From NCBI GenBank assembly GCA_016125225.1, contig WGME01000017.1, positions 1 to 64,000 on the forward strand: DNA of 64,000 nucleotides. Reading direction: 5' to 3'. The translations under genes were made by a program, and so were the position numbers. Within the stretch, counting starts at the first letter, position 1. Every line of letters begins with the position of its first letter. A model generated the notes under the pieces. It was not told the origin of the DNA, searched no databases, and saw only the letters and a list, made by a program, of their open reading frames with translations. Origin of the DNA: a bacterium. Lineage in GTDB: Bacteria > Planctomycetota > Planctomycetia > Planctomycetales > Planctomycetaceae. Positions 32,149-33,490 of this stretch are shown one piece after another.

Positions 32149-32444
32149 GACTCGGTAGCTCAGTTGGTAGAGCAACGGACTTTGATAATAGGAGTGCCCC
32201 GGTCGCAAGGCTGGAGGTAGAACCGCGCCATATGCTGGAACACCCTGAGAGCCGTCGGTACGCAACCGCGTGACAATCCGGCGGATTGGGCAATCAGCAG
32301 GAAACCCGCAAGGGGCTCCTCAGAGACTTGACGCGTGGCTCCCCTCGTGGGAGATGGTAAAGTCCAGACCGCAACAGTTTGGCCGGTGAAAGCCGGTGCG
32401 GTAGGTTAATCCGTAGGTCCCGCGTTCGAGTCGCGGCCGAGTCA
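32149..32444 (+). tRNA. tRNA-Lys(UUU), interrupted by a group I intron
   Basis: Acceptor GACTCGG (32149-32155) pairs with CCGAGTC (32437-32443); discriminator A at 32444; CCA not encoded. The D arm is GCTC/GAGC. The anticodon 5' strand ACGGA (32175-32179) pairs with TCCGT (32410-32414). The T arm is CCGCG-TTCGAGT-CGCGG. The exons are 32149-32182 and 32406-32444. Joining them gives loop CUUUUAA with anticodon UUU, that is lysine. The interruption falls after U34. This split tRNA is the only tRNA gene seen in the window. Confidence 0.92.
32183..32405 (+). ncRNA. self-splicing group I intron inside tRNA-Lys
   Basis: 223 bases. P1: exon ACUU pairs with internal guide GAGU (32192-32195), giving the U-G wobble at the 5' splice site; the last intron base is G (32405). 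P2 is CCGGUC/GGCUGG with a GCAA loop (32199-32214). P7 is GACUU (32325-32329) with AAGUC (32360-32364). P8 is CUCCC/GGGAG (32339-32353). P3 is CGCGU with ACGCG. The core phrases CAGAGACUUGACGCG and GGUAAAGUCCAGA match the conserved R and S elements of subgroup IC introns. It encodes no homing endonuclease. Size and position resemble the small introns of cyanobacterial tRNA-Leu. Confidence 0.9.
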
Positions 32445-32581
32445 ATCGTGTCTTGTTCCTTTTCTGTCACTTCGCAGGTAGCAGCTCTCTTACAAGTTGT
32501 TGAAGTCGCTGGCGAGTTGCTCGCCTGCTCTCTACCATCCACCCAACTCGTGCTCACACTTTGTGTCCGTGATGACGTGGA

Positions 32582-33490
32582 ATGATCGAATACAATCGCT
32601 ACAGCTGGTGGCAGACCACATTTTCGCTGCATGGCACGGCCTTGCCTCGGGCGGCCGGGCGGGTCTTGATCTTCACGGTCTATGCCACATTCGTGCAGTG
32701 GGCCTTTGAAACCGGTTTGAGTATCGGTTGGATCGACAGCCAGCAGTTTCTGGGACTCGATCCCGTAGGCCATGCGGTGCTGGGGTCGCTGCTCGGCTTT
32801 CTGATTGTCTTCCGCATGAACGCGTCGAACGCGCGGTATTGGGAAGGTCGCTCGCATTGGGGGCAGATCATCAATTCGAGCCGCAATCTGGTACGGCTCG
32901 GCAGTGCCCATTTGCCCGATGCTCGCGAACTGGCGGGCTTGGTCGCAGGGTATGTCATTGCCCTCAAGCGGTCGCTGCAGGGGCATCGCGATGCCGAAGG
33001 GGCCGAGATTTACCTCTCGCCCTCGGTGCTCGACCGGATTTCACACTTCGGCAATCCCCCGACGGCGGTCGCTGGTGCCACGTCAGACTGGATCGCTGCG
33101 AGGCATCGCTCGGGCGAGATTGATGCTCTGATGGTGCGGCAAATGGAAGAGCAACTCTCCAAGCTGGTCGATGCACAAGGGGGCTGCGAAAAGATTCAGA
33201 AAACACCGCTACCCTTTGTTTACGTGGTGATGGTGAAACAGCTCATCGTCGCGTACCTGTTGACATTGCCTGTCGTGCTGTGTGAGCGGTGCGGCTGGTG
33301 GTCCCCCATGCTGATGTCCGTGGTGTCACTGGGCCTGTTTGGCATGGAAGAGGCGAGCGTGGAAATTGAAGATCCCTTCGGCTCCGACGACAATTGCCTG
33401 AACATGGACGCATTCTGCCTGACCATCGCCCGTGATACCGGGCAGCTCGCCAAATATGCTTCGCAGCCAACAGCGTCCGTCAATTCGTGA
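32582..33490 (+). CDS. bestrophin-like anion channel
   Basis: 302 residues. MIEYNRYSWWQTTFSLHGTA and the region FLIVFRMNASNARYWEGRSHW match the bacterial bestrophin/RFP-TM family, and the C-terminal GMEEASVEIEDPFG carries the conserved acidic/EDPFG signature. The hydrophobic segments (about 25-45, 65-80, 215-260) fit a four-helix pore subunit of a pentamer. Bestrophins conduct chloride and bicarbonate. It is followed after about 36 bases by a beta-carbonic anhydrase, which suggests bicarbonate handling. Confidence 0.9.
   Translation: MIEYNRYSWWQTTFSLHGTALPRAAGRVLIFTVYATFVQWAFETGLSIGWIDSQQFLGLDPVGHAVLGSLLGFLIVFRMNASNARYWEGRSHWGQIINSSRNLVRLGSAHLPDARELAGLVAGYVIALKRSLQGHRDAEGAEIYLSPSVLDRISHFGNPPTAVAGATSDWIAARHRSGEIDALMVRQMEEQLSKLVDAQGGCEKIQKTPLPFVYVVMVKQLIVAYLLTLPVVLCERCGWWSPMLMSVVSLGLFGMEEASVEIEDPFGSDDNCLNMDAFCLTIARDTGQLAKYASQPTASVNS

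What the first reader, a model, noticed from the sequence alone, without database searches (positions are those of the whole stretch)
32149..32444. Group I intron inside tRNA-Lys(UUU), inserted after U34
The exons join to a perfect tRNA-Lys cloverleaf only if 223 bases are removed. Those bases show P1 (ACUU/GAGU with the U-G pair), P2, P3, P7 and P8 and end in G, all as expected of a small IC-type intron. Bacterial tRNA group I introns that I know of are in Leu(UAA), Ile(CAU), Arg(CCU) and fMet genes. A lysine host in a planctomycete would extend the range, and the insertion site equals that of cyanobacterial tRNA-Leu introns, hinting at a shared insertion history.
Basis: partly seen in the sequence, partly recalled or inferred. 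Interest (0 to 1): 0.87.

Follow-up and report, generated by a model that had tools for sequence, protein, structure and literature searches.

The report
Self-splicing intron in a lysine tRNA
A lysine tRNA gene of a planctomycete is interrupted in its anticodon by a small RNA that very probably cuts itself out; the same insertion recurs in related bacteria and in a second phylum.

Summary
Window 32149-32444 is a tRNA-Lys(UUU) gene split after U34 by a 223-nt group I intron (32183-32405): P1 with a U-G pair, P2-P9, the P3/P7 pseudoknot, terminal G. Rfam's group I model matches it end to end (27.2 bits, E 3e-5), below the 50-bit cut-off. No intact tRNA-Lys(UUU) was found in this genome. The intron recurs at the same site in 5 of 170 genomes of the family, at least 32 of 45 of the Paludisphaera (Isosphaeraceae) family, a Gemmataceae genome and 11 of 201 of the Svornostia (Thermoleophilia) order. 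In 43 of the 49 distinct introns typed, 95.8% of pairing cells are kept and 29 of 54 pairs change on both sides, P7 included though the search model lacked it. Four intronless relatives carry exactly the predicted spliced tRNA. 'IC-type' is half right: P3-P7 resembles 23S rRNA introns, P8-P9 resembles tRNA-type introns, so the family looks mosaic. No group I intron in bacterial tRNA-Lys(UUU) appeared in the paper listings seen; one paper claims much shorter inserts in tRNA-Lys(CTT). Splicing itself was not tested.

The parts
32149..32182 (+). 5' exon of tRNA-Lys(UUU), ends ACGGACUU (through U34)
   Evidence: intronless relatives are tRNA-Lys(TTT)
32183..32405 (+). group I intron, 223 nt, ends in omega-G (32405); no ORF of 90 aa or more lies wholly inside it
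   Evidence: RF00028 27.2 bits, E 3.1e-5; covariation in 43 relatives; ORF list
32406..32444 (+). 3' exon, UUAAUCCGU..., discriminator A73
32179..32195 (+). P1: exon ACUU (32179-32182) with guide GAGU (32192-32195); U34-G pair at the 5' splice site
   Evidence: sequence; a GGAG lies in the first 110 intron bases of 57 of 58 typed records (pairing not checked one by one)
32199..32214 (+). P2 hairpin, GCAA (GNRA) loop
32223..32338 (+). P3: 32223-32228 with 32333-32338
   Evidence: 99.6% of cells paired, 5 of 6 pairs change on both sides
32233..32299 (+). P4: 32233-32237 with 32295-32299; P5: 32243-32245 with 32288-32290
   Evidence: invariant pairs in 43 sequences, so no covariation support of their own
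32252..32284 (+). P5a: 32252-32258 with 32278-32284 and inner stem 32260-32263 with 32268-32271
   Evidence: 6 of 7 outer pairs change on both sides
32300..32319 (+). P6: 32300-32302 with 32317-32319; loop variable in length among relatives
32325..32364 (+). P7 (guanosine-binding helix): 32325-32329 with 32360-32364, pseudoknotted with P3
   Evidence: 100% of cells paired in 43 sequences, 2 of 5 pairs change on both sides though P7 was left out of the model
32339..32353 (+). P8: 32339-32343 with 32349-32353
   Evidence: 88.3% of cells paired; one pair unpaired in 25 of 43
32368..32402 (+). P9 (32368-32372 with 32398-32402) and P9 hairpin 32383-32396 with GAAA loop

Best explanation
It is a small group I intron that interrupts the only tRNA-Lys(UUU) gene found in this planctomycete, between U34 and U35. 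Inferred mechanism: guanosine bound at P7 attacks the U34-G wobble pair of P1, the freed U34 attacks after the terminal G, and the exons join to give tRNA-Lys with anticodon UUU. It belongs to a family of tRNA-Lys(UUU) introns shared by Planctomycetota and Thermoleophilia. In the Paludisphaera family it is so common that ancestral presence with losses is likely; in this window's own family it is scattered. Shown: structure, covariation, site, and no other copy found in this genome. Inferred: the chemistry, whether it is autocatalytic or protein-assisted, and the route of spread.
For: RF00028 match over all 253 model positions, E 3.1e-5. Of 21 distinct Lys introns scanned within their loci, 8 give an RF00028 match, 27.4-47.5 bits. 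Covariation: 312 cells changed on both sides against 86 in shuffles, 95.8% paired against 34-42% when slid. No intact Lys(TTT) among 43 typed tRNAs of G000. Same site in 5 of 170, at least 32 of 45 and 11 of 201 genomes, and in a Gemmataceae record. Four intronless genomes have a tRNA letter for letter equal to the spliced product of eight distinct intron-bearing genes. Terminal G in 41 of 41 loci.
Against: The Rfam score is below the curated cut-off in every Lys intron scanned, 13 of 21 give no RF00028 match in their loci at the limits used, and whole-window, 801-base and whole-genome scans miss this one. Fold energy alone is unremarkable (z -1.45), though that method cannot form the P3/P7 pseudoknot. 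Five of 18 intron-bearing genomes also carry an intact Lys(UUU), so splicing need not be essential there. No RNA evidence.
Confidence: 0.95

Rival explanations
1. It is a tRNA-Asn(GUU) gene with an intron after U33, as ARAGORN reports: the intron would lie one base earlier at both ends.
For: ARAGORN's call; the -1 register also gives a perfect cloverleaf.
Against: The last intron base would then be G, C, A or T in different relatives, whereas group I introns end in G; 25 of 25 intronless relatives are Lys(TTT); an intact Asn(GTT) exists and Lys(TTT) would be missing; A73 fits Lys, while the intact Asn gene has G73.
Confidence: 0.02
2. A dead or degenerate intron in a tRNA pseudogene.
For: Rfam score under cut-off; some relatives have a spare intact Lys(UUU).
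Against: Core helices intact, most of them covarying, tRNA body perfect, no other Lys(UUU) found in this genome.
Confidence: 0.02
3. A plain IC3 tRNA intron sharing one insertion event with the cyanobacterial tRNA-Leu(UAA) intron.
For: Same site after U34 (recalled). The P8-P9 part is closer to three IC3-like introns of CAU-anticodon tRNAs. Thermoleophilia members share a P8/J8/7/P7 stretch with the Anabaena intron as recalled (6 of 208 loci, 4 distinct genes; scores 30-52 for 7 of 7, shuffled maximum 26; 3 of 12 Isosphaeraceae members also exceed it, 27-33). The tree does not reject Lys+Ile together (p-AU 0.45) and draws Ile, with two planctomycete 23S introns and one more, on the Lys side of an unstarred fork.
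Against: The P3-P7 part scores at chance level against the IC3-like introns (medians 17-19, null 99% 23) but above it against 23S introns (medians 25-36). A P5a hairpin is present; PMC11835236 states that the P5(a-d) regions are absent from IC3.
Confidence: 0.15

Closest known systems
[quoted passage not shown]
   Same: small, in an anticodon loop after U34; similar P8/J8/7 in Thermoleophilia members (site and sequence recalled)
   Different: host is Leu; core P3-P6 unlike; no P5a hairpin (recalled)
tRNA-Ile(CAU)-type group I introns (Azoarcus kind by recalled motifs; here L079, L080, L088)
   Same: tRNA anticodon loop; P9 and J8/7 sequence alike
   Different: insertion before C34 in L079/L080 by eye, short P5, different P3-P6 core
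23S rRNA group I introns, some with LAGLIDADG genes (IB4-like; here L085-L087, L167-L172, L174-L176)
   Same: P3-P4-P5-P5a and the 5' strand of P7, e.g. TATGCTGGAA, GACAATCAGCAGG, CCTCAGAGACT
   Different: rRNA host; a LAGLIDADG gene in the three tested (L086, L174, L175); different P9 end
tRNA-Arg(UCU) intron of G381 (L083)
   Same: tRNA host with a 23S-like core; RF00028 64.1 bits
   Different: inserted after U36 by eye, different P9
'Group I introns' of 22-49 nt claimed in cyanobacterial tRNA-Lys(CTT), Arg and Gly (PMC5733544, passages read)
   Same: claimed lysine host
   Different: far too short to hold a group I core; other anticodon

Membership tests
Group I introns | P3/P7 pseudoknotted core with P4-P6 and P8 | tested here: met
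   P3 99.6%, P7 100% of cells paired, with changes on both sides; P4 and P5 invariant
Group I introns | P1 with U-G wobble at the 5' splice site | tested here: met
   ACUU/GAGU in the window; GGAG within the first 110 bases of 57 of 58 typed records
Group I introns | last intron base is G | tested here: met
   41 of 41 loci found by a model that does not require it
Group I introns | G-C pair of the guanosine-binding site in P7 | tested here: met
   first P7 pair G-C in 43 of 43; its role recalled
Group I introns | Rfam RF00028 gathering score of 50 bits | tested here: not met
   27.2 bits, E 3.1e-5; best of 21 Lys introns scanned 47.5. A curation threshold, not a biological feature: L079, L080 and L088 score 29.3, 31.5 and 44.3
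Group I introns | guanosine-dependent splicing | not testable with these tools
   needs RNA
IC3 tRNA introns | no P5a-d extension | tested here: not met
   P5a pairs covary; absence in IC3 stated in PMC11835236 (passage)
IC3 tRNA introns | core sequence similarity from P3 to P7 | tested here: not met
   at null level against 3 IC3-like introns
IC3 tRNA introns | P8-P9 sequence similarity | tested here: met
   medians 24, 36 and 32 against null 99% 21, maximum 23
IB4 (LSU rRNA) introns | core sequence similarity from P3 to P7 | tested here: met
   medians 36, 26 and 25, best 54; null 99% 23, maximum 29
IB4 (LSU rRNA) introns | P8-P9 sequence similarity | tested here: not met
   medians 14-17, below null 99% of 21 (single best pairs 21-28)
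IB4 (LSU rRNA) introns | best score against subgroup covariance models | not testable with these tools
   GISSD models not held

The most novel reading that the evidence does not exclude
The tRNA-Lys introns are a mosaic ribozyme family. A 23S rRNA-type (IB4-like) core was joined to the P8-P9 end of a tRNA-type (IC3) intron, once, before the Lys introns spread through Planctomycetota and Thermoleophilia. The borrowed 3' end may be what let an rRNA intron work in an anticodon loop.
Probability: 0.35. Interest if true: 0.7.

Novelty: new variant of a known kind. Interest (0 to 1): 0.55.

Why it matters
It adds lysine(UUU) to the tRNAs that carry group I introns, and Planctomycetota and Thermoleophilia to the hosts named in the reviews read. 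In 13 of 18 intron-bearing genomes no second, intact copy was found. ARAGORN misses the window gene by default and, with introns allowed, calls such genes Asn, Leu or Gln, so these genomes can look as if they lacked tRNA-Lys(UUU). At least 32 of 45 genomes of one family have it, while four sisters have an intact gene identical to the spliced product, which gives a natural series for studying intron gain and loss. The two-part resemblance makes recombination between ribozyme lineages testable.

Tried and rejected
Rejected: tRNA-Asn reading (terminal G, intact Asn gene, relatives); pseudogene; chance. To find the same locus in two same-genus genomes I searched the downstream protein (32582-33487, bestrophin-like by eye): G007 gave only a 34% match, as similar as a second copy in the own genome, and G008 (64% complete) none. 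No ORF of 100 aa or more around their Lys genes (6-kb stretches) matched those around ours, so whether the intron alone or the whole tRNA gene changed hands in this genus is open. Those two Lys genes also have a different acceptor stem.

The core tree (40 rows: 24 Lys, 12 LSU, 3 Ile, 1 Arg) is too short to settle relations: 8 of 36 inner branches are starred; one clade of all Lys introns is not rejected (p-AU 0.51), and neither is Lys+Ile (0.45). The mosaic contrast was therefore tested by regions chosen after seeing the alignment (p 0.0001-0.0015; the four groups are not independent) and again by local scores with shuffles, independent of the model alignment. Both rest on only three IC3-like reference introns. 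In one search the 3' comparison dropped rows whose 3' part was under 40 bases. Four extra short matches (rows 41-44 of A7) were left out; one search used 6 of 12 LSU rows and 21 of 24 Lys rows (without L196, L207, L208). The pair count used 43 of 49 distinct Lys introns: L196, L205, L207, L208, L117 and L094 were left out before it, several of them because the model placed their long 3' end badly (one search lists them).

Plasmid search with the window gene: nothing. Viral contigs, three patterns: nothing. Own slips: one search aligned three loci on the wrong strand (redone); the regex was wrong and typed nothing (redone, whose regex itself asks for a G before TTAAT; the 12 other loci that it left untyped were then read and hold no tRNA-Lys).

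Full report
OBSERVATION. The two exons (32149-32182, 32406-32444) join to a perfect 73-nt tRNA-Lys(UUU) with A73. The 223 bases between them can be drawn as a complete group I intron: P1 ACUU/GAGU, P2 with a GCAA loop, P3, P4, P5, P5a, P6, P7, P8 and P9 with a GAAA loop, ending in G. Default searches see nothing: ARAGORN without introns, Rfam at gathering score, Rfam on 801 bases at E 1, RF00028 on the own genome at E 10. Given only the 296 bases, RF00028 aligns from its first to its last position with 27.2 bits, E 3.1e-5, under the curated 50. Minimum-free-energy folding is not distinctive (z -1.45).

WHICH tRNA. ARAGORN with introns calls Asn(GTT), because a shift by one base at both ends also works. 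The Lys reading wins. The own genome (6.35 Mb, 42 contigs, completeness 100) has 43 Rfam tRNA hits; typing them shows Asn(GTT) and Lys(CTT) intact and no intact Lys(TTT). Of 30 family loci fetched with the window gene as query, 5 are interrupted and 25 are uninterrupted, all 25 typed Lys(ttt). In the 41 Lys loci found by the covariance model the last intron base in the Lys register is G every time and the one before varies. In 49 of 58 typed records the intron starts with a base other than U, so only two U follow C32, which fixes the 5' site after U34.

RELATIVES. BLAST over the 170 genomes held of the own family found the intron in 5: the own genome, three of genus g50 and one of g32. A covariance model R1 built from four of these found the same five there, plus two introns in tRNA-Ile(CAU)-type genes (L079, L080) and two weak hits taken as chance (L081, L082). 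In 392 genomes drawn from the phylum R1 hit 8: the own gene, a second tRNA-Lys (L084), a tRNA-Arg(UCU) (L083), a CAU-anticodon tRNA (L088), three 23S rRNA introns (L085-L087) and one weak match (L089) without tRNA or group I support. A pattern scan of named genomes gave 31 loci, of which 17 carry an R1 match; all 17 are tRNA-Lys introns. Their records are titled Planctomycetaceae, Planctomycetales or Planctomycetota, Isosphaeraceae (with Tautonia sociabilis and Paludisphaera soli), Gemmataceae, Thermoleophilaceae, Solirubrobacteraceae and Svornostia abyssi (Actinomycetota, Thermoleophilia). Three metagenome bins have other labels (L108 'Bifidobacterium breve', L116 and L117 'Candidatus Kuenenia'). 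L116 has the contig length and position of G131 of the own family; the genomes of L108 and L117 were drawn into the Svornostia order and the Paludisphaera family. The pattern demands a particular P9 and 3' junction, so it is a lower bound.

PREVALENCE. In the family of Paludisphaera soli 36 of 45 genomes have an R1 match; 32 were typed as tRNA-Lys (30 loci fetched, and L117 and L094), four were not typed (G745, G774, G775, G779). Of the nine without a match, four (G758-G761) have an intact tRNA-Lys identical letter for letter to the spliced product of ten loci, eight distinct genes. One (G757) shows only a match that looks like the array-type gene, one (G765) two matches not typed, and three none. 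In the order of Svornostia abyssi 20 of 201 genomes have a match; 11 are tRNA-Lys; of the other nine genomes eight have 23S rRNA introns and one (G693) introns in what reads like a coding region.

IS THE GENE NEEDED. Of 18 intron-bearing genomes, 5 (G076, G125, G132, G540, G543) also have an intact Lys(UUU), four of these within runs of 7-11 tRNA genes; 13, this one among them, do not by the pattern used. One of the 13 (G546) has an array-type copy that is itself interrupted. The pattern needs a CUUUUAA loop and GUUCRA, so it could miss an odd gene. In four further intron-bearing genomes (G766, G771, G548, G580) the pattern gave no match resembling the spliced gene.

STRUCTURE TEST. On 43 of 49 distinct Lys introns 95.8% of 2167 pair cells are standard (79.8% in shuffles, 34-42% when slid); 29 of 54 pairs change on both sides; 312 cells do (86 in shuffles). 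P7 was absent from R1, so its 100% pairing and two doubly changing pairs do not come from fitting the alignment to it. Weak spots are one P8 pair, one P9 pair and one P2 pair, unpaired in 25, 16 and 12 of 43. The rows are related sequences, which shuffles do not allow for; the slid controls do.

AGAINST RFAM. Of 21 distinct Lys introns scanned in their loci, 8 match RF00028: L163 47.5, L156 44.5, L103 and L179 42, L106 34.5, L098 32.9, L078 29.2 and L166 27.4 bits. Thirteen, the window's among them, do not at those limits, and none reaches 50.

WHAT KIND OF GROUP I INTRON. The 5' two thirds (up to the second strand of P3) resemble the 23S rRNA introns found by the same model, and the 3' third (P8 to the end) resembles the tRNA-Ile introns. 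Local alignment scores, 5' part: medians 36, 26 and 25 against 23S introns and 19, 18 and 17 against Ile introns (null 99% 23, maximum 29). 3' part: medians 14, 14 and 17 against 23S and 24, 36 and 32 against Ile (null 99% 21, maximum 23), for Planctomycetaceae with Gemmataceae (5), Thermoleophilia (7) and the Paludisphaera family (12). A column permutation test agrees. Thermoleophilia members also match the Anabaena tRNA-Leu intron over P8-J8/7-P7 (scores 30-52, 7 of 7; shuffled maximum 26; 23S introns at most 22), but that sequence is recalled, not fetched. So the label IC3 fits one end only. Recombination is the simplest reading; unequal rates of change are not excluded, and the tree cannot decide. 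The IB4 label is inferred from the 23S sites near 1923 and 1931, which PMC6125680 lists for archaeal IB4 introns; positions were counted by eye. Three of three reading frames tested in these 23S introns are LAGLIDADG endonucleases.

MECHANISM. Inferred from the anatomy and from established group I chemistry: external guanosine at P7 attacks after U34, then U34 attacks after the terminal G. The excision restores the anticodon UUU. No ORF of 90 aa lies within the 223 bases (a mechanical minus-strand ORF, 32294-32986, overlaps the end), so spread by reverse splicing, by recombination or together with the tRNA gene is more likely than homing by an enzyme of its own. In this genus the flanks of the tRNA gene differ from those of two relatives.

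LITERATURE. Passages read: PMC4033280 (tRNA introns in cyanobacteria, alpha- and betaproteobacteria; Leu and fMet named), PMC8450103 (fMet and Ile2), PMC3984707 (no 'lysine' or 'tRNA-Lys'), PMC11835236, PMC5733544 (22-49-nt inserts in cyanobacterial tRNA called group I, Lys(CTT) among them, too short to be so), PMC6125680 (abstract and passages: 39 archaeal introns, all in rRNA genes), PMC4090602. Nine topic searches of open-licence papers were seen as listings, some cut short (e.g. 25 of 37, 15 of 94); apart from PMC5733544 none of the titles or abstract starts pointed to a group I intron in a bacterial tRNA-Lys. One search covered only for letters of the recalled intron and found nothing. 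Subscription papers and tRNA databases were not searched.

Noticed in passing
L079, L080 (own family, G059 and G071), L088 (G412): Group I introns, IC3-like by recalled motifs, in tRNA-Ile(CAU) or other CAU-anticodon tRNA genes of planctomycetes.
   Followed up: partly
L083 1501-1799: Group I intron in tRNA-Arg(UCU) after U36, RF00028 64.1 bits, core like 23S introns.
   Followed up: partly
L167-L172, L174-L176; L168/L176/L178 from one genome (G606): 23S rRNA genes of a Thermoleophilia order with one or several group I introns; LAGLIDADG genes confirmed in L174 and L175.
   Followed up: partly
L173 and L177 (G693 contig 223): At least two group I-like introns close together in what reads by eye like a phage structural gene (two R1 matches, one RF00028 match).
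   Followed up: no
L135 (G546): An array-type tRNA-Lys(UUU) is interrupted at its anticodon loop by about 207 bases with short inverted ends (CAATACC...GGTATTG) and a 10-base repeat CTTTTAAACC on both sides: a transposon-like insert, not a group I intron, by eye.
   Followed up: no
L131, L133, L137, L147, L151: A second, intact Lys(UUU) in five intron-bearing genomes, in four of them within runs of 7-11 tRNA genes.
   Followed up: no
window 32149-32444: A one-base shift at both splice sites would turn the product into a tRNA with the asparagine anticodon GUU, so splice-site fidelity decides the anticodon.
   Followed up: partly
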